Below, in pieces: positions 118 to 45,954 of a stretch of DNA of 45,954 nucleotides. The DNA lies in contig JAGLDN010000049.1 in assembly GCA_023145575.1 (NCBI GenBank), positions 1-45,954 of the forward strand. Direction: 5' to 3'. The position numbers were made by a program, and so were the translations under genes. The notes beneath the pieces are model-generated. The model was given only the letters and a program-made list of their open reading frames with translations. It did not search any database and was not told the DNA's origin. Position 1 is the first letter of the stretch; each line of letters begins with the position of its first letter. This DNA comes from Psychromonas sp. (lineage in GTDB: Bacteria; Pseudomonadota; Gammaproteobacteria; Enterobacterales; Psychromonadaceae).

Positions 118-221
118 TATACCCAAGTGCCGCAAAAATACTTGTGCCCCGCAGGGCAAGGCAACTAGCACCTTGGTACTATTTCCTTGCTGAATTTGCA
201 CTTTTACGTCACATGGGTATA
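118..221. repeat. MITE-like element, family A (about 104 bp)
   Basis: Left end TATACCCAAGTGCCGCAAAAATAC and inverted right end ...GCACTTTTACGTCACATGGGTATA form imperfect terminal inverted repeats. The interior (gtgccccgcagggcaaggcaactag) recurs at about 18286. Confidence 0.65.
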
Positions 222-13449: not shown

Positions 13450-13735
13450 AATACTTTATCCTTAAAAGGCTAAAAATTAACAACTATTCAAGCTATTAAT
13501 TAATTTAAATGAATAATCACAGTTTGAAACGTTGCAAATGACGACGATACTTTTACTTTCTATACGCATCGCCGTGCGAAAAGCAAACTAATATAGTTTG
13601 TTTGTCTTCCCATGATACTCACAAAAAGAAAACCAGACAACTGTGTAACAATCGAAAAGGACATTTCGTTTATCTTACGTTGTATCTTACTCTGAGAATT
13701 CATATTAAAGTGTCATAGATTGATTCGCGAATGAC

Positions 13736-14071
13736 TTAAATAGACTTAAGTGTGCCTTTAGGCAAAACCGCTGTAATGAAATCTTTTTTAATAACAATCA
13801 CATTATTTTCATTAAGTTCTATCTGAACATAATCGTTTTCTTCTGTGTATTTAGTCACTCTGCCGATTAAACCACCTTGTGTTAATACTTCATCACCTTT
13901 GCCGATGCTACTCATGAGATTTTTATGATCTTTTGTGCGTTTAGCTTGTGGGCGATAAATCATAAAGTAGAAAATTGCAGCAAAAATCACCACCATAAAG
14001 ATTAATTGAAAGGGACTACCGCCCTTTGCATGCTCTGTTGCGGCTTGTGCTTGTGAAATAAATAAACTCAT
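13736..14071 (-). CDS. yajC: Preprotein translocase subunit YajC
   Basis: IFYFMIYRPQAKRTKDHKNLMSSIGKGDEVLTQGGLIGRV. Confidence 0.95.
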   Translation of the reverse strand: MSLFISQAQAATEHAKGGSPFQLIFMVVIFAAIFYFMIYRPQAKRTKDHKNLMSSIGKGDEVLTQGGLIGRVTKYTEENDYVQIELNENNVIVIKKDFITAVLPKGTLKSI

Positions 14072-14144
14072 TTTTTGTTCCTTAAGTGTAATAAACTAAA
14101 TTTTTTCTTTGCTTTTCATTGGTTTATATATAGGTAATAGAAGA

Positions 14145-15290
<1,146 letters not shown>

Positions 15291-15332
15291 TTATCCTCGG
15301 ACAATCCGATGATAATGCTTGTCATTTTTATA

Positions 15333-15615
15333 TATACCCATCACACATGAAGATGCAGGTTTCAGTGAGAATTTAAAAGCTTAGAGGCTAGGCATTGATT
15401 GAACAGAATGGTTATTTCCTTGCCAAAATAAATAACACCTTTAAAACTCGTCCTTTGGGGACAACTGAATAAATCATATTTTGCGTTGCAATACTAAAAA
15501 AGTGAATAACAATAAAGGTTAAAGTCTTTTTTTAAACCCTACCGAAGGGAGCATTGCGTCTTGAACATGAATCACTCAGATGTCCTGAAAAGAGTATCTT
15601 CAGGTGATGTGTATA
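15333..15615. repeat. MITE-like element, family B, long form (about 283 bp)
   Basis: TATACCCATCACACATGAAGATGCAGG ... TATCTTCAGGTGATGTGTATA inverted termini. The interior is shared with 18349-18514. Confidence 0.65.
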
Positions 15616-15721
15616 TACTTCAATTTATGCCTAGCATCTTCGCACAATTGCTTTGTTGACTTTTCAACTTGAAGTTGCGTGGGGATATGCCCATGTTATT
15701 TGCAAGGGAAAAGATAAAGAT

Positions 15722-17584: not shown

Positions 17585-18161
17585 TTTTATCTCGTTAGAT
17601 TATAAATACTCTGTAAAAAAATTGTCAAAAGTATACCTGCAATGATGTAATTTGCAAAGTATAAATATAGTGAAAAACTATTTTTTTCGCGCATTAATAT
17701 CACTCTAGCGCACTGTGTTTTGAATAAATGAGATTTTAATCTAATGATATATTAAGTCAACAATAGGGGGCAGCCATAAATAGTGCATTATTGTCCCCAT
17801 GGTGCTTCAAGATGGAATGTCAGATAGGCAAATTGTACCGAGGTATATACCCATTAAGTATGCACCGAAATTTAACGCAGTAAAAATAGCTTAACTCAAG
17901 GGTAAAATTGATGTAAATAATTGTTCCATTTACAAAAATAACAAGTAAGTTATTTTAAGCAGTAAAATAAAAAGATATTTGTTTTTATTTGTATAATTGT
18001 CGCGTCATGTCGAGATTATATAACTCGCTAGATTAGTGCAAGTTGTTATTCCTTGTAGGGTATAGCGACTTGTTCCAACCAACAAAGTTATAAAATGTCG
18101 ACTTATAACTACTCGTCAAGTATTAAAGTCTTTATTTTAATTTGACCTTTGGTGATTAACG

Positions 18162-18588
18162 TATACCCATGTGACGTAAAAATGCTTTGTCAGGCTCAAG
18201 CTCGATGATCATAACAAGGCACAATATTAGGTAATTGTTATTCACTTTTTGATTATTGTAACGCAGTCTTGGTTTTCGAATTTGTGCCTCGCAGGGCAAG
18301 GCAACTAGTACAAACCTGCGTTGTTATAAAATCTCTATTTAGAATAACTATACCCATCACACCTGAAGATGCAGGTTTCAGGATAACTGAGTAAATCATC
18401 TTTTGCGTTGCAATACTCAAAAAGTGAATAACAATAAAGGGTTAAAGTTTTTTTTAACCCTACCGAACGGAGCATTGCGCCTTGAACATGAATTACTCAA
18501 GTGTGATGTGTATATACTTCAATTTTATGCCTAGCACCTTGATACTATTTCCCTTGCTGAATTGGCACTTTTGCGTCACATGGGTATA
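18162..18588. repeat. MITE-like family A element, enlarged by a nested family B element (about 427 bp)
   Basis: TATACCCATGTGACGTAAAAATGC at the left end and GGCACTTTTGCGTCACATGGGTATA at the right end. The interior contains the B element at 18349-18514. Confidence 0.65.
18349..18514. repeat. MITE-like element, family B, short form (about 166 bp)
   Basis: TATACCCATCACACCTGAAGATGCAGGTTTCAG ... GTGATGTGTATA. Interior (tgcgttgcaatactcaaaaagtgaataacaataaaggg...) matches 15333-15615. Confidence 0.65.
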
Positions 18589-18748
18589 GCTAATCATCGA
18601 GAGGGCAATTTTATGTCGAGTAACTTAGCACTATTTGCCGATCTGACGTTGCATTTTGAAGCATCACGGGTACATTAAATAATAATAGATACATCACCTT
18701 TAATTTTAATGACGATTTCCCAAATACACCATTATTTGGCTTTTGTTA

Positions 18749-23500: not shown

Positions 23501-23931
23501 TTAAATCTCCAATTACATTTACATTTTTTATCTATACTATACCAATACACATGTGACGTAAAGATGCAATGTCAGCATCTAAAATTATGCCAATACACTC
23601 GACACAAAATTATCCTCTTGATAAAAAAAGAAAGACTTTAACACCTAACGAGTCATGCTAATTCGAAATCTTAGCACTGCGTTGATTGGTGCAAGTATCC
23701 AAGCACATTAACGCAGAACTCTGTTTATTATTAAAACATGCGATCCGTACATTGACTCAACTGAACAGGAATCAACCAATCAATAATTGACATGTTGACG
23801 TTAATTCACAGAAAATGACAAGCGCAGCTAATCATTGATAAGTATCATGTTGTGCATTTTTCTGATCATCAAATTAGTGTCTGAGATTACGTTTTGAAGA
23901 CACATGATCATAATACTATTTTTTATCACGA

Positions 23932-28181: not shown

Positions 28182-29061
28182 GTCACGATGCAAATACTAA
28201 ACAAATTTAACCAAAAAGCCAAGCCTTTTTTTATTTTATTTACAAATCGTATTATTTACCTGCGTGACATCAAAATACTTTATCTGTTGCGTCCTTGGAT
28301 ACCAGATCAGGGGATAATACGCGGTAAATGCTATTCATTTTTCGTTTGTTACGCAGAGGTTGGTTTTCAATCTCACCTCCAGTTGGTCTTGGGTAATTAC
28401 ACTAATCTACGTCGTGATAAAATAAAGACTTTAATTCTTAACGAGTCGTTCTAAATCTACGTTTAATAATTTTGTGGATTGGTACAAGTGTCCTGGCCAA
28501 TTGGTGCGCTAACTTGACTTATTATGAAAACAAAGCAGCGCCACGTTATCAAAATCGAAAAGGAAGTAACCAATCAATTATTAACATCTTTGCGTTAATG
28601 CTACCGAAAAATGATGAACTACTGAGGCTGTTTGCTCTGCGTTATGAAAGCTCTCTGGGCCACCGCTATTTTATATTATTTTTGTACTCGTAGCGCAATT
28701 ATTTAAATGACGAGTAATAGTTGTTTTATGTTTTCGTAAGGCTTGAGATATCATCTCTTTAGACAAATCCTCAGTGGAGAATAAAATCGCTTTTATTCTG
28801 TAGCACTCATGCTTGTCCCGACTGGTTTTATGGCGATGTCCTAAGATTAATTTTTGTCTCTATGATAATGATCTTTGCATAGAAAATAGTCTGATATCTT
28901 TATTGCAAATCTACAATTGCAAGTTGTAGTGTTCTAAATGAGAAGTATTTTCAAAGATCGTGGGTATATAAATTTTACAATTCTTCTTAATTACAGTACA
29001 TTAACTGTTGTTTTTTGTTATTATTTGAAGCTTATAAAGCTTTCATGTTAAAAGGTTATTT

Positions 29062-33454: not shown

Positions 33455-34174
33455 TATAACTCCATTACGGACTTGTTAAATTTCATGTCTTTCAACTTAC
33501 TTAAAGAAGTTGCTCTTTTAGGACTATTTTTACAGCAAGCTGTTAAGTAAAATTATTTAAACACTTAGACAACATATTATTAAGATAAATAAAATGATGT
33601 GTGTGAGTATGAAATTGAACCCTCTATGATCAATTAGCCAAATTGTATTTGTAATTTTATACCCATGTCACTTCGAAATGCAACGTCTGCAAGGAAAATT
33701 GTGCTAATATCCTAGGCATAAAATTGCCCTCTCGATGATTAACTACGTTGATCACCAAAAGCCGAATTAAAATAAAATAAAGACTTTAATTGTTGACGAG
33801 TTTTTCAATTTTTCATGGACAAATATCACATCATTAATAAATTATAATAGATGTTTAACAAAATAAAGATATTCCAGTTATAATCTATAGTCATTTTATG
33901 TCTCCTGTCCTCTGGTGATTTTTCTTACCCTGTTTGGCAAGGCTCTATATCCAGAGCTACACTACCAGATTTGTAAAGAAAATAATGATGTAACAATTAA
34001 CATTTATTTGTGAGCTCTACAGGCAAACGATAAGCGCAGCTAATCGTCGATAGGTAAAATTTTACGTGTCGCTTTTAATCTTAAGATCATCACGGATAAA
34101 AGATCTTGAGATAACCTAGGCTTTAGTCAATTATAGTGTATCAAAATTTATGCTTTAATAATAACGAGAAAATT

Positions 34175-38922: not shown

Positions 38923-39213
38923 TCATCCAATTAATACTGTGGGGTTCCCAATTGTTACTTTAGCTCCGTGCACTGTGGAATCGCCCAATCTAACCGCGGG
39001 TTTTCCACCAATCATTACCGTAAAGGATCCTATAATAATTTTATCTGGCGGCCCGACACAAACACACTGATCTCCTAAAATTGCAGCGGGTAGACCACCA
39101 ATCAAGACATTCAGAGCGCCAGGGCCTATAATGGGCCCGCCAACATGTGGCACTACGCCTGTGACTTGTGCGCATACATGTATACCAGTAATTGTTGCTG
39201 CTGGAACTCCCAT
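38923..39213 (-). CDS. PAAR-domain T6SS spike-tip protein (ORF opens at 39345; likely start ATG 39213)
   Basis: MGVPAATITGIHVCAQVTGVVPHVGGPIIGPGALNVLIGGLPAAILGDQCVCVGPPDKIIIGSFTVMIGGKPAVRLGDSTVHGAKVTIGNPTVLIG; glycine-rich PAAR repeats. RBS-like ggagg just upstream of 39213. Confidence 0.9.
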   Translation of the reverse strand: MGVPAATITGIHVCAQVTGVVPHVGGPIIGPGALNVLIGGLPAAILGDQCVCVGPPDKIIIGSFTVMIGGKPAVRLGDSTVHGAKVTIGNPTVLIG

Positions 39214-39435
39214 CGCTCCCTCCTTAATTTTTATTAAATTAAAAATCGATGAGTATTTAATATTTAGTGAATAAATCAAATAAAGATTATGTATATACCC
39301 ATGTAAAGTAAAGTTGAAAAGTAACATGGGCATCGTTATGAACACCGCTTGTTCTTTTATTTAAACTAATTTACGATCATACTCGTTATCATTTATTGGC
39401 GTAGCTCCTCAGTCTGTGACAAAGCAATACTTTCC

Positions 39436-39723: not shown

Positions 39724-41679
39724 TCAATTCAACTGAATCATCGCGGCTTTTTGGGCGATTTTAGAACCAGTAATACTTATATCTGTTCCTTTAATGTCAA
39801 CCTGACCGTTAGCCGATAATTTAATAGAGGCCAATCCCACTTCAAAACTAAGCTCTGTACCCGCTTTAATAGTTAATTTCATTTTCGATTCTAATGTATG
39901 ATCTTGAGTTGATATTGCGGATCTAGTACCTTTAACTTCTAAAGAATCGTTGCTTGCAACTGTTACCGTCTGAGCAGCTCCTAGTTCTAACTTATATTCA
40001 CCGTCAATTTTGGTAGAACTGGTTCCCTCAACAGTTAGCTCGTCGTTTTTCTTCACTGAAACAGTACGATTTTCACCAACTTCAATAGTTTGCACCTTAG
40101 TCACGCTTTCAGTACTATTATTGAGTACTTTAGTAGTAGAGTCGTTTTTGATTACTATTTCATAATCTTTTTCTGCCTGCAGGGCGAATAATTCTTTACC
40201 TTTCTCATCCTCAAAACGTAATTCATTAAAATTATCTGATTGCCCATTTTTTGTGCTCTTTGTTTTAATACCACTTTGCGTTTTTTTCGCTGGCAATTCA
40301 TAAGGTGGCATGTAATCTACATTATTAATCGCACCAATAATGATAGGCTGATCAGGATCGCCATTGACAAAGTTAACAATTACTTCTTGCCCAACGTGAG
40401 GGTAGAAGAATGCCCCCCATCCATTCCCTGCCCAATTTTGAGAAACACGGATCCAGCATGAACTGCTTGAATCCTTCTTTCCTTCTCTATCCCAGTGGAA
40501 TTGTACTTTAACTCGCCCATATTTATCTACTAAAATTTCATCTCCCTTTTCACCAGTTACTACAGCGGTTTGAATGCCATTAATTAATGGTTTTTCCCGT
40601 AATAATACAGGGCGATAAGGTGTATCTTCAGGGACACATTCAAAATGATTCTTGTATATGCCAGTTTTATTTGAAGCTTCGGTTATTACCGAAGTGAGCA
40701 TAAACGTTTTACCAACATAATTAGGATCTAAATGATCTTTAAAGGTAAATAGCTTCCCGACCAGAAAACTAATGCAAGAACTCGTGCCGAAACATTTGCG
40801 CATGTCTTTTTGCACTGCTTCAAGACGTATGTTAGCAATAGGTTCAGCGCGTTTATTTAATTCAGATTCACCGACAAATTTATATATTTCGTATGCATTT
40901 TGATCTGGTAATGAGGCTACAACACTCTTTCCAGAGGGTAAACCTTTTGGCCGTGTATAGTCATAACCTAGTTGAGAGTAGGCTCCGCTGGTCATCGTTA
41001 ATCCACCAGACCACGTATCAACTTCTGAAAAGTGGTCGCTAGGCCTGTGCGTTATTTCACTTTGATCACATTTTACGTAGCTACTCACATCGTTTATAAG
41101 AATTAACATATGTTCTTTTTTAGTATGATCAAAGTAGTAGAAGATCCCTTCTTGCTCGAGTATCCGGCTAATAAAAGCTAAATCGGTCTCTTGATATTGT
41201 ACACAGTATTCATATTTTGGATGGCTACCTTTAGTTGAATCCTTAAAGGCAACTTTATGTTGACCGAATAAATCAGAACAAATATCAATCACAGATTTAT
41301 TTTGAAAAATCCTGCAATTTATTCGATTTTCCATAAACGCTACTTTGGGAACAATCATTGCCTTATAACGGATAAACTTTTCAGCAGAATCTGTGTCTAG
41401 TGTTTGGACACCATCGGATTCTATGTGAGTAATAAACCCGTGGAACTCACGCAAATATTTTTTGGATTCTCTGGTACAAGATAAGGAGATAGAGACTGAC
41501 TTTCCGATTAAATCATCTAATTTAATTTTACTGTCAACAGCATGCATTAATACTACAATCGAAAAAGGTTCCGACATTTTTTCAGTTACGCTAAAACCAG
41601 TTAAAGCAAGTTTACCTTTGCCTAATGGCGTTGATATCTGAATGCGATCAATCATTAAATTTTCTGAACTAGTTGCCAT
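39724..41679 (-). CDS. vgrG: T6SS spike protein VgrG/TssI (ORF opens at 41748; likely start ATG 41679)
   Basis: gp27-like N-terminus (CVQYQETDLAFISRILEQEGIFYYF); gp5 OB segment (VDKYGRVKVQFHWDREG...CWIRVSQNWAGNGWGAFFYPHVGQEVIVNFVNGDPDQPIIIGAINN); beta-helix tail, no C-terminal extension. Confidence 0.94.
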   Translation of the reverse strand: MATSSENLMIDRIQISTPLGKGKLALTGFSVTEKMSEPFSIVVLMHAVDSKIKLDDLIGKSVSISLSCTRESKKYLREFHGFITHIESDGVQTLDTDSAEKFIRYKAMIVPKVAFMENRINCRIFQNKSVIDICSDLFGQHKVAFKDSTKGSHPKYEYCVQYQETDLAFISRILEQEGIFYYFDHTKKEHMLILINDVSSYVKCDQSEITHRPSDHFSEVDTWSGGLTMTSGAYSQLGYDYTRPKGLPSGKSVVASLPDQNAYEIYKFVGESELNKRAEPIANIRLEAVQKDMRKCFGTSSCISFLVGKLFTFKDHLDPNYVGKTFMLTSVITEASNKTGIYKNHFECVPEDTPYRPVLLREKPLINGIQTAVVTGEKGDEILVDKYGRVKVQFHWDREGKKDSSSSCWIRVSQNWAGNGWGAFFYPHVGQEVIVNFVNGDPDQPIIIGAINNVDYMPPYELPAKKTQSGIKTKSTKNGQSDNFNELRFEDEKGKELFALQAEKDYEIVIKNDSTTKVLNNSTESVTKVQTIEVGENRTVSVKKNDELTVEGTSSTKIDGEYKLELGAAQTVTVASNDSLEVKGTRSAISTQDHTLESKMKLTIKAGTELSFEVGLASIKLSANGQVDIKGTDISITGSKIAQKAAMIQLN

Positions 41680-42507
41680 ATAATTTACTTCCTCCAGCAT
41701 AAGCTTTTTCAAGCTCATCTTAATTAAGCCGTGGTATACTATACTCATGCTACTTCACAGAAAAAATGTAAAATTAGCAAGGTAAATTGTATTACGATAG
41801 TTACTAGGTATAAAATTGAAGTATTAATTATTCTACGACAAGATATTATAACAAAATAGATACCTCCATGCGATAAATAATCTTGAATATAATCCACACT
41901 AAACAGTAAGTAAGAACGTAGCGTTCAATAAATTTTAGAATTGTATTTCAGCCTAAGTTTATGTTTCGTAAGCATTTTTTCTTCACATAAGTAAGAAGAA
42001 TAGACACACAACAATATTACTCTTTCTAAACATAATTAAACATCGAGTCTCTTTGTTGAAGTAAATCTATATACTTAAGACCAATTGCTTTATCATTCAC
42101 AATAATTTATGGCTGTTAATACTGAAACTCTCAATGAAAGAAATTTTATTATTCCAAAATAACAAATTATTAATCGAGTCTTTAATTAAAGTGTAAGTAC
42201 AGCAAAGACTTATATAAGTAGGGGCATAAAATAGTCAACATTCTATGATGCAAATAATTAGTTGCTAGTTTAAATATCTAAAGAAATATTAAAGCAATTA
42301 TCGCTCACTCATAAAATATTTATAGGACTTTATTATCCTATTATGACCATTTATTAAAGCTTATGGTTTTGCAATATATTTACTATACTATATATCAAAA
42401 ATAAACCACCTTTTTTTAACATTAATATGTATATATGTACTTTAAATAGTAAATTTCTCTAAAATCATTACTATTTAAAGTTATCATATGATTTTTTTAT
42501 CTTACTA

Positions 42508-42978
42508 TCATTGCTTTCCCTTATTACCCACAACGGATGGATCGTAATGATATACTTGTACAGATACAGGCTTTCCATCTTCATAAACAGAGATTTCCAC
42601 CCCTAGCGAAGTGAAGTGCAGAACCCCAGTTTCAACAGGTGACTCGCCTTGTATCGACAAATGATAAGTTGTCAAAAATACGTTTTCCATTTCGACGCCC
42701 ATGGTTTTCACAAAATTCTTCCCATCTGCTCTGCACATGGATATAACAACTTTTTTACCGGTTCCTTCATAAAATTCTTTTAAAAGCTCTGTCGATCCAA
42801 CGCACATTGGTTTAGTAAAATTCAGTTCCCCGAGTTGTGTAGTACCAGCAATTGCATTTTCGAAACCTCGCCAAACACCAAAGTCACAAGAAAGAAGCGC
42901 CATGTTCTCTTTATAATCATCAACCCCGATGCCACCTTGTATAGTTTCGTAAAGCATAAACATTTTTACGGTTGCCAT
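42508..42978 (-). CDS. Hcp-family T6SS tube protein (hcpA of this island)
   Basis: MFMLYETIQGGIGVDDYKENMALLSCDFGVWRG...LLKEFYEGTGKKVVISMCRADGKN...VFLTTYHLSIQGESPVETGVLHFTSLGVEISVYEDGKPVSVQVYHYD, an Hcp-type layout. Confidence 0.75.
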   Translation of the reverse strand: MATVKMFMLYETIQGGIGVDDYKENMALLSCDFGVWRGFENAIAGTTQLGELNFTKPMCVGSTELLKEFYEGTGKKVVISMCRADGKNFVKTMGVEMENVFLTTYHLSIQGESPVETGVLHFTSLGVEISVYEDGKPVSVQVYHYDPSVVGNKGKQ

Positions 42979-43045
42979 TTTATTTCTCCTTAAAGATAGT
43001 AATATTTTTTTGTAAACTAAATAATTTTAATATTAAGCAGCAAAA

Positions 43046-43293
43046 TTAAGCTGCACCAAGTTCGAAATTTTTATTCGTAAATCTGTAATGTTTCTTGCTA
43101 GTTATTTTCCCTTCCTCGCTAATAATATTTATAGTACAATTTAGGGACGGATAGCCCATGCCGTAGATTTTCACTGCTGTGCCTCCATGTATTGTAACCG
43201 AATAATTGGTTATCAAACAAGTTATAGTCGAAACTTGTACTGCCCCGACTGTTTTTCCTTGATTTTGTTTAGTAACATCAAAGTACGTATGTT
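43046..43293 (-). pseudogene. N-terminally truncated copy of the Hcp-like gene hcpB
   Basis: The minus strand reads YFDVTKQNQGKTVGAVQVSTITCLITNYSVTIHGGTAVKIYGMGYPSLNCTINIISEEGKITSKKHYRFTNKNFELGAA*. It aligns end to end with the C-terminal half of the ORF at 44170-44652. No start or N-terminal half. Confidence 0.85.
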
Positions 43294-43551
43294 AAGTACC
43301 TTCTATAAATTTTTAAATGATATTAATTAAATAATAATATTATTACTAATACTAACGTAAATTAAGTAATGATACAATATTTCATTTTACTAATATATAA
43401 CATTTAAAATTGAAGATCAAATGTTAAGAACATAATAAAATAAAACTTTTAACTTATTATACTGAAACATAGAGCTAAATCATAAAAAACTATTCTGTTA
43501 GTATCATTATATTTGCATAGAAACCGCTTGTTCAATATACGAAAGTTAAAT

Positions 43552-43735
43552 TAAAAGGTCCAAAAATAAGACGAATCATCATAAACTCGATAAGCATGGA
43601 TCTCACCGAAGAAGCGAAAGATAATCTTTGAATAAATTAGCACTGTATTGATTAAACACCTTGATCTGAGTAAAACATTAATTTTTTAGTTTCTGGCTTG
43701 ATAAATGAAACAATAGGATCAATCAAGAGATCTTC
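43552..43735 (-). mobile_element. IS3-family transposase remnant (unit 1)
   Basis: Minus strand DLLIDPIVSFIKPETKKLMFYSDQGV, the DDE-region segment of an IS3-type OrfB. Flanking block aattaaaaggtccaaaaataagacgaatcat is shared with 44992. Confidence 0.7.
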
Positions 43736-43872
43736 AAATTTATTTCAATACGACATATTGAATGATTATTAATAAAACTTGAACGTATTCAACACTGGCG
43801 GCATAAAAACTGATCAGATTAATGAAGAAAAAATATTAAATATTTGCGCTCTTTATCAAGATGCGCAGGCTT

Positions 43873-44094
43873 TTAAAAAATTGCCCAAATAACGATTAGC
43901 GTTATTAAAATCATCAAAATACCAGCTGTTGAGCTATCCAAAGCAACATTAACAATAAAATAAGACCTTGTTGAACGATCAGAATATGGATCTATTCGTT
44001 GGCGGTTTTGATGTGGCAACTGGTGAGGTGTTCTCAGTTTATTTAAATCATCTACTCCGATATTACCCTGAATATCTTGGTAAGACATAAACAT
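43873..44094 (-). pseudogene. Decayed hcpA copy: Hcp N-terminus joined to an unrelated TM-containing tail
   Basis: VKMFMSYQDIQGNIGVDDLNK matches the hcpA N-terminus. The position of the hcpA start codon is ATA here. The tail ends STAGILMILITLIVIWAIF (predicted TM). Confidence 0.6.
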
Positions 44095-44169
44095 TTTTAC
44101 AGCTGCTATTTTATTTCACTTTAAAGATAATGCTATTTTTCTGTAACACAAATAATATTAAATTTAATA

Positions 44170-44652
44170 TTATTCTGAACCAAGTGCGAAATTTTGATTC
44201 GTAAATTCGTAATGTTTCTTGCTCGTTATTTTTCCATCCTCGGCAATAATATTTACAGTAAGACCTAGTGACGAATAGACCATACCATAGCTTTCTACTG
44301 GTGTGTCAGCATGTATTGATACAGAATAAGTGGTTATCAAACAATTTATAGACGCAACTTGTATTGCCCCGACTGCTTTTCCTTGACTTCTTTTAGTAAC
44401 ATCAAAGCACGTATTTTCTGCCGCACCCTCACAAGCTTGTTTATAAAGTAAGGCCGATGCAGCATCTTGCCTTTTAGTAAACGTAAGTGGACCTGAAACA
44501 GGTTTACCTCCCGCTCGAAAATCTCCTCCCTTGGGTGCCTGTTTAAAAATTCTGAAATTCACAGTGTTGCACATTATTCTATCTTTAAAATTCTTAGCTT
44601 GCGAGTATCCCTTAATAGTGTCGAATTTTAAAAAAGTACTTGGCTTACGCAT
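44170..44652 (-). CDS. Hcp-like T6SS protein (hcpB of this island)
   Basis: FLKFDTIKGYSQAKNFKDRIMCNTVNFRIF...INCLITTYSVSIHADTPVESYGMVYSSLGLTVNIIAEDGKITSKKHYEFTNQNFALGSE resembles the Hcp layout, including the TTYHLSI/TTYSVSI strand and C-terminal strands. Confidence 0.6.
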   Translation of the reverse strand: MRKPSTFLKFDTIKGYSQAKNFKDRIMCNTVNFRIFKQAPKGGDFRAGGKPVSGPLTFTKRQDAASALLYKQACEGAAENTCFDVTKRSQGKAVGAIQVASINCLITTYSVSIHADTPVESYGMVYSSLGLTVNIIAEDGKITSKKHYEFTNQNFALGSE

Positions 44653-45179
44653 AGTCTATACTCCTGTTTAGATTTGTGTAATGTATATACGGTCAAATAC
44701 TTTCTATAACTTTTAATTGATATTCATTAATAAAGTAACAAGATTACTATAACCAAATTAAGTAATGACCCAATATCTACTTAAACTTATATATTACATT
44801 TCGAATTATAGATCGAAATTTCATCCTATAATAAAATAAAATATAATAAAACGAAATAGAACTTATAACTTATATTCTAAAACTTAGATCTAAATCATAA
44901 AAATCTTTTTTCTATTAGTATGATGATACTTGCATCTATTATCATAACATTTGCACTTAAACAGCTTGTTATATATACAAAAGTAAAATTAAAAGGTCCA
45001 AAAATAAGACGAATCATCTTAAACTCGATAGGCATGGATCTCACCGAAGAATCGAAATATTTTAAATAAAATCGTATTATCTTAACAGTTTATTATACCT
45101 AATATAAACTTATGACAAATGTAATATAAAGCGGCATGCCATAACTCAGCTTGTACCTATCAATGGCTTTATAAAAATT

Positions 45180-45874
45180 CTACTTGGAGCGCAGCGGTCA
45201 ATTTTTTTTATGCTTTCTATGCCACATCTCAAGATTTTTTCTTGTTTAAGCGGGTGTATTACACCAAGTGATGAATGAGGTCGTTTATTGTTGTATTACC
45301 TAATGTAGAACACTGTAGCGTGAATTACAGGAACTTGATTGATGAAGATTCCCCCCTTTAAACATTCGCTTTTTAAGCTTCTCAAAAACGTTCTTGTACG
45401 CCACTATCTCAGCAGTTTCCTCTTAGGCTCACATTTTGTGTAATGTCATGAAGCGATAGATAATTTTTGAATAAATTAACACTGTATTGAACGCCTCGAT
45501 CTGAGTAAAACATTAATTTTTTTGTCTCTGGCTTGACAAATTAAACAGCATTCATTAAGGCTTTTTTAGCGAGTTTCGCGACAGGTGTTCTTGATAATGC
45601 ATAGCCAACGATCTCCCGAGTATGAAGATCTAAAAAGCTAAAAAAATAACGCCAACCTTGGCAATTTCTACTGTAATATAACCTAGCCAATGAGTATTAA
45701 TGATGACCGAGTTAAACTGTCTTTTATGAATATTCGTATATTATGTTTTTCATTACCCTCTGGATAAAAATGAAGTTTTTTAGGGATCTTTGCGATGACA
45801 ACAGGATCCTTCATCAGTCTAGCAACTTTAAACGAACCAATTGTAAAGCCTCTTTTTAGCAATGCTTTATGCAT
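45180..45874 (-). mobile_element. Degenerate IS3-family transposase (OrfB-like) remnant
   Basis: Minus-strand fragments in several frames: RGFTIGSFKVARLMKDPVVIAKIPKKLHFYPEGNEKHN; GWRYFFSFLDLHTREIVGYALSRTPVAKLAKKALMNAV*; FVKPETKKLMFYSDRGVQYSVNLFKNYLSLHDITQNVSLRGNC*; NNKRPHSSLGVIHPLKQEKI. Stops and frameshifts present. Confidence 0.9.
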
Positions 45875-45954
45875 TTTCTGCGGTCAAGTCTGTGGAGGTA
45901 CTTTTCATGCAATGCTTGAATTATTGTGACGAGCAAGTAGGTTTTAGGATTGAT

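What the first reader, a model, noticed from the sequence alone, without database searches (positions are those of the whole stretch)
42508..45545. Tandem duplication of an [IS3 fragment - hcpB - hcpA] unit with reciprocal decay
Two copies of one unit lie in tandem. Unit 1 (about 42508-43740) has intact hcpA, truncated hcpB and an IS3 fragment. Unit 2 (about 43873-45545) has decayed hcpA, intact hcpB and a longer IS3 fragment. Homology is visible in the hcpB-hcpA spacer (42979-43045 vs 44095-44169), in the region upstream of hcpB (43297-43540 vs 44690-44980) and in the IS3 segment. Each unit has kept the paralogue the other lost, which suggests both Hcp types are maintained while redundant copies erode.
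Basis: partly seen in the sequence, partly recalled or inferred. Interest (0 to 1): 0.75.

Follow-up and report, generated by a model that had tools for sequence, protein, structure and literature searches.

The report
Decayed tandem duplication of T6SS tube genes
A marine Psychromonas-like bacterium duplicated a pair of genes for the tube of its type VI "syringe" and then lost one gene from each copy; less ordinary is that both surviving tube proteins have drifted to about 28% identity with a protein that is normally about 81% conserved.

Summary
Colinear self-alignments (79%, 72%, 87%; E 1e-93 to 1e-29) show a tandem duplication of [hcpA–hcpB–upstream–IS3 fragment]. Unit 1 keeps hcpA; its hcpB lost the start codon and first ~79 codons by deletion. 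Unit 2 keeps hcpB; its hcpA is a ~27-codon start-less stub. This is duplication followed by reciprocal loss, ordinary in an IS-rich genome. A neutral-decay simulation gives about 0.1–0.2% chance that either surviving frame would still be open, so both were probably kept by selection.

The unexpected part lies around it. The genome keeps intact T6SS core genes (TssB/C/H 73–80% identical to relatives), and no third hcp was found. Yet HcpA and HcpB are only 25–33% identical to canonical Hcps of the order (median 81% among themselves) and 26% to each other, on tree branches 60–77 times the median. Both are predicted to keep the Hcp fold. I read them as two fast-diverging tube subunits; that functional step is inferred.

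The parts
42508..42978 (-). hcpA, intact (unit 1), 156 aa; in the slot directly upstream of vgrG
   Evidence: ORF; PF05638 E 6.5e-14; AF2 pLDDT 86.7 and Foldseek hits to solved Hcps, TM about 0.8
42979..43045 (-). hcpB-hcpA spacer, unit 1 (78% to 44110-44169)
43046..43293 (-). psi-hcpB, unit 1: last ~82 codons kept in frame, start codon and first ~79 codons deleted
43294..43613 (-). upstream (5') region of hcpB, unit 1; includes an 81-nt block 94% identical to unit 2
43611..43717 (.). internal IS3 fragment, unit 1
43718..44045 (+). internal fragment of an IS630-type (DDE_3) transposase at the junction of the units
   Evidence: own-genome copies C22, C61, C299; PF13358 match of the C22 copy
44029..44109 (-). 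psi-hcpA, unit 2: about 27 codons, start codon ATG replaced by ATA, cut off by the IS630 remnant
44110..44169 (-). hcpB-hcpA spacer, unit 2
44170..44652 (-). hcpB, intact (unit 2), 160 aa
   Evidence: ORF; PF05638 E 8.9e-16; AF2 pLDDT 84.0 and Foldseek hits to solved Hcps
44653..45053 (-). upstream (5') region of hcpB, unit 2 (about 78% to unit 1, with indels)
45195..45954 (-). IS3-family transposase remnant (rve), cut by the contig end; many degraded copies elsewhere
39724..41748 (-). vgrG (55-58% to relatives' VgrG)
38923..39345 (-). PAAR protein
   Evidence: PF05488
36694..38856 (-). two genes conserved downstream of vgrG in relatives' T6SS clusters (42% and 40% to G023)

Best explanation
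Shown: a bicistronic unit (hcpB then hcpA, read on the minus strand towards vgrG), with its upstream DNA and an IS3 fragment, exists in two tandem direct copies. Unit 1 lost the 5' part of hcpB and part of the IS3; unit 2 lost nearly all of hcpA, now bounded by an IS630-type remnant. One intact hcpA and one intact hcpB remain, each with its own copy of the old upstream region. Shown: the T6SS core genes in the genome are intact, and these two are the only Hcps found. Inferred: tandem duplication then reciprocal loss in an IS-rich, eroding genome (confidence 0.85); both genes kept by selection (0.8); both descend from the canonical hcp of this T6SS by accelerated evolution, hcpA keeping the ancestral place next to vgrG (0.6); both proteins now build the T6SS tube, as two ring types or mixed rings (0.45).
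For: Colinear self-matches and gapped alignment. Neutral-decay control: chance of an open frame 0.2% for hcpA and 0.1% for hcpB; zero indels in 245 nt of psi-hcpB/hcpB where 6.2 are expected (P 0.002), so psi-hcpB stayed coding for part of its history. Core T6SS genes intact on contigs C46 and C57, TssB 76%, TssC 79%, TssH 79% to G023. Only two Hcps by family model and by canonical Hcp query. Single hcp before vgrG in G005/G009/G023/G028. Identity 25-33% to 28 canonical Hcps whose own median is 81%. ML tree puts A and B in or beside the canonical clade with branches 2.66 and 3.32 against a median of 0.043. Predicted Hcp fold kept.
Against: No relative with an intact undecayed hcpB-hcpA pair was found, so the pre-duplication state is inferred. 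Long branches make the tree placement unsafe. Both structure models were built on alignments that contain canonical Hcps, which biases them to that fold. The assembly is 94% complete in 500 contigs, so a canonical hcp may be missing from it. Nothing here shows expression, ring assembly or secretion.
Confidence: 0.8

Rival explanations
1. HcpA and HcpB are xenologues: one or both arrived from an unsampled lineage and displaced the canonical hcp, rather than evolving fast in place.
For: No intermediate was found: best matches are 31-32% in 395 genomes of the order, and nothing reached the E-value limits in 369 genomes of the class. A genome-contig scan with hcpB found no relative. VgrG next to them is only modestly diverged.
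Against: The tree places both in or beside the canonical clade of this T6SS. hcpA sits in the canonical place before vgrG and the two conserved downstream genes. The search found no donor.
Confidence: 0.3
2. A canonical hcp exists in the unassembled 6% of the genome and runs the T6SS; HcpA and HcpB are accessory paralogues or eroding leftovers.
For: Completeness 93.9% in 500 contigs. Omega of about 1 between hcpB and its pseudogene shows no strong constraint.
Against: The place of hcp after tssH on C46 is taken by a carboxypeptidase Taq-like gene, and the place before vgrG by hcpA. Open frames are unlikely under neutral decay.
Confidence: 0.25
3. The two units are not one tandem duplication but two dispersed copies later brought together by IS recombination, with independent IS3 insertions.
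For: The junction is an IS630 remnant and both flanks are eroded. Over 57-61 bp the unit IS3 pieces are about as close to copy L149 as to each other.
Against: Same orientation, adjacency and unbroken colinearity across coding, spacer, upstream and IS3 sequence.
Confidence: 0.12
4. Assembly artefact: two strains' alleles joined at a repeat.
For: Fragmented assembly with many IS repeats.
Against: The units differ by 13-28% and by large indels, and the IS630 copies are only 70-79% alike, too diverged to mislead an assembler.
Confidence: 0.03

Closest known systems
Tandem duplication-random loss (TDRL), best known from mitochondrial gene-order changes (e.g. PMC5745709, salamander mitogenomes, abstract read)
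   Same: Tandem copy of a multigene segment, one copy of each gene lost, pseudogene remnants still visible
   Different: Bacterial secretion operon; gene order unchanged (the outer copies survive); mobile-element remnants inside the unit and at the junction
Bacteroides T6SSs with several Hcps in one system forming heterohexamers (Zheng et al. 2026, as cited in PMC13323088; the paper itself is not held)
   Same: More than one divergent Hcp for one T6SS, no other hcp found
   Different: Gammaproteobacterium whose relatives' equivalent clusters hold a single hcp; no assembly data
Salmonella Typhimurium: one T6SS, three hcp genes (PMC13055400, abstract only)
   Same: Several hcp genes for one T6SS
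   Different: Here two, about 26% identical, beside decayed duplicate copies

Membership tests
Hcp / TssD (T6SS tube protein, PF05638) | Match to the Hcp family model | tested here: met
   52.8 and 58.8 bits against cut-off 23.5; weakest of all Hcps in the genus (others 75-117 bits); neither matches an NCBIfam model
Hcp / TssD (T6SS tube protein, PF05638) | Hcp beta-barrel fold | tested here: met
   AF2 models pLDDT 86.7 and 84.0; Foldseek best hits are Hcps, TM about 0.8; alignment includes canonical Hcps
Hcp / TssD (T6SS tube protein, PF05638) | Extended loop that contacts the next ring (Asp40-Arg56 in B. pseudomallei Hcp1, PMC4650826) | tested here: inconclusive
   Shortened by 7 residues in HcpA and 3 in HcpB at the aligned place, and the DREAS motif is lost; a low-confidence region of both models
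Hcp / TssD (T6SS tube protein, PF05638) | Hexameric ring and secreted tube | not testable with these tools
   Needs biochemistry or cryo-EM
Tandem duplication with reciprocal loss (TDRL) | Two colinear direct copies side by side | tested here: met
Tandem duplication with reciprocal loss (TDRL) | Complementary inactivation with remnants | tested here: met
   psi-hcpB without start and 5' part; psi-hcpA of about 27 codons without start codon
Tandem duplication with reciprocal loss (TDRL) | Unduplicated ancestral state in a relative | tested here: inconclusive
   Relatives G005, G009, G023 have one canonical hcp before vgrG; none has an hcpB-hcpA pair

The most novel reading that the evidence does not exclude
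This T6SS has given up its nearly invariant single Hcp and runs on two very divergent Hcps that co-evolve as a two-component tube, driven by duplication and relaxed or diversifying selection, while the sheath (TssB/TssC) and ClpV (TssH) stay conserved.
Probability: 0.3. Interest if true: 0.65.

Novelty: new variant of a known kind. Interest (0 to 1): 0.42.

Why it matters
The duplication is a good mid-way snapshot of operon duplication and reciprocal loss, but that process is well known. What could matter is the contrast inside one machine: sheath and ATPase at 73-80% identity to relatives, tube protein at about 28%. Hcp was thought to be held tightly by ring stacking, sheath templating and cargo binding. 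If both proteins really build the tube, the system shows how far the tube can drift while the sheath does not, and whether a second paralogue releases that constraint. Heteromeric Hcp rings have, in the papers seen here, been reported from Bacteroides.

Tried and rejected
Relatives of hcpB in genome contigs: none. Class-wide searches for closer HcpA or HcpB: none. PDB search by sequence: none for HcpA, only weak Hcp hits for HcpB. The conserved 81-nt block 43531-43613 (reads YTKVKLKGPKIRRII-NSI-MDLTEE on the + strand): no Pfam match, no match in the fetched relatives' loci. Promoter scan: no more sites than shuffles, so no promoter claimed. IS3 co-duplication by unique similarity: not decisive. 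The Zheng et al. heterohexamer paper is not held. The record name of the window's genome was not determined; the genus (Psychromonas) rests on a 4,559,598-base relative that I recall as P. ingrahamii 37 and on G004 matching the three-contig 1.69-Mb CDP1 genome of PMC5893861.

Full report
WHAT IS THERE. The window is the whole of contig C434 (45,954 bases) of a 3.18-Mb, 500-contig genome, 93.9% complete. It belongs to a genus that I identify as Psychromonas: one member has a single 4,559,598-base contig, which I recall as P. ingrahamii 37 (memory), and another is a 1.7-Mb, three-contig genome like CDP1 of PMC5893861. On the minus strand, reading towards lower coordinates, the end of the contig holds: an IS3-family remnant, hcpB, an hcpA stub, an IS630-type remnant, a short IS3 fragment, an hcpB fragment, hcpA, then vgrG, a PAAR gene and two genes conserved downstream of vgrG in relatives.

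THE OBSERVATION. Self-BLASTN gives three colinear direct matches between the units with E-values of 3e-93, 6e-57 and 3e-29. By segment, gaps left out: hcpA 5' end 76% over 76 nt, spacer 78%, hcpB 3' half 83% over 245 nt with no indel, upstream AT-rich part 78% with eight indel events, an 81-nt block 94%, IS3 fragment 87%. Unit 1 lacks 44415-44691 of unit 2, which holds the start codon and first ~79 codons of hcpB, and about 45061-45449. Short repeats (GTAT; GAAGCGA) lie at the two deletion junctions (read from the alignment). Unit 2's hcpA has ATA where hcpA has its start ATG and ends after about 27 codons.

CORRECTION. It is an internal piece of that element, so the original tandem junction has been lost. 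The IS3 of unit 2 begins near 45195, where other copies also begin, and runs off the contig.

HOW IT AROSE. The simplest history is one tandem duplication of [hcpA, hcpB, upstream DNA, IS3 fragment], followed by deletions that removed hcpB from unit 1 and hcpA from unit 2. Reciprocal outcome is not itself informative: if one copy of each gene is kept at random, half of outcomes are reciprocal (inference). What does carry weight is a neutral control: evolving each intact gene for half the inter-unit distance (K 0.196) with the indel rate seen outside coding sequence leaves the frame open in 0.2% (hcpA) and 0.1% (hcpB) of runs. Also, psi-hcpB shows no indel in 245 nt where 6.2 would be expected (P 0.002), so it probably stayed a coding gene for part of its history before the deletion. 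dN 0.20 and dS 0.21 between hcpB and psi-hcpB (omega about 0.97 by bootstrap median, range 0.48-2.6; differences by codon position 17/15/11) give no sign of strong amino-acid constraint.

THE SURROUNDINGS. Relatives G005, G009, G023 (same genus) and G028 carry a single hcp directly before vgrG, preceded by the clpV gene tssH in G009, G023 and G028 (the G005 contig starts just before hcp). The window's genome keeps intact tssA, B, C, C2, E, F, G, H on contig C46 and tssJ, K, L, M, tagF, pppA on C57. After tssH on C46 there is no hcp but a carboxypeptidase Taq-like gene (my reading of the sequence), so the hcp-vgrG part has been separated from the core. A canonical Hcp query and the Pfam model both find only hcpA and hcpB.

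THE OUTLIER. Twenty-eight canonical Hcps of the clade are 72-99% identical to each other (median 81%); HcpA is 26-33% and HcpB 25-32% identical to them, and they keep only 23 and 25 of 72 invariant positions. In the same genome TssB is 76-78%, TssC 77-79%, TssH 73-80% and VgrG 55-58% identical to relatives. The ML tree gives HcpA 2.66 and HcpB 3.32 changes per site against a median end branch of 0.043, attached in or beside the canonical clade and not as sisters (long branches make this unsafe). No closer relative was found in 395 genomes of the order or 369 of the class. AlphaFold2 models (pLDDT 86.7 and 84.0) match solved Hcps at TM about 0.8, with the caveat that the alignments contained canonical Hcps. 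Both proteins have a shortened loop at the place where the ring-stacking loop of B. pseudomallei Hcp1 lies (PMC4650826), and have lost the DREAS motif.

INTERPRETATION. I hold the duplication and reciprocal loss as well supported. I think it likely that both genes are kept by selection, and more likely than not that they are fast-evolving descendants of the canonical hcp, with hcpA in the old place. That they form a two-component tube is a guess with a precedent: PMC13323088 cites Bacteroides T6SSs with several Hcps forming heterohexamers. The main rivals are import of divergent Hcps and a canonical hcp missing from the assembly.

NOVELTY. The duplication alone is ordinary. A T6SS with a conserved sheath and two extremely divergent Hcps is, as far as these searches show, an unusual variant of a known machine.

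Noticed in passing
window 165-221, 15333-15640, 18068-18672, 23626-23815, 28418-28610, 33660-33801: A family of short dispersed repeats, direct and inverted, 68-97% identical.
   Followed up: no
window 43531-43613 and 44971-45053: An 81-nt block 94% identical between the units inside flanks of about 78%; open on the + strand as YTKVKLKGPKIRRII-NSI-MDLTEE; no family match.
   Followed up: partly
L164 (C46) 13676-15700: Transposase-like ORF remnants lie between tssA and tssB, and the T6SS core is split over C46 and C57: the cluster is being broken up or is fragmented in the assembly.
   Followed up: partly
G006 C1:19777-41666: A relative (4.56 Mb, one contig) has two Hcps and two long VgrG open frames (1067 and 1212 aa) within 22 kb.
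   Followed up: no
L037 2682-3986, L035 4995-6083, L036 3912-7994: Genes between vgrG and the conserved downstream pair differ in length among relatives and look like variable cargo; the window has only a PAAR gene there.
   Followed up: no
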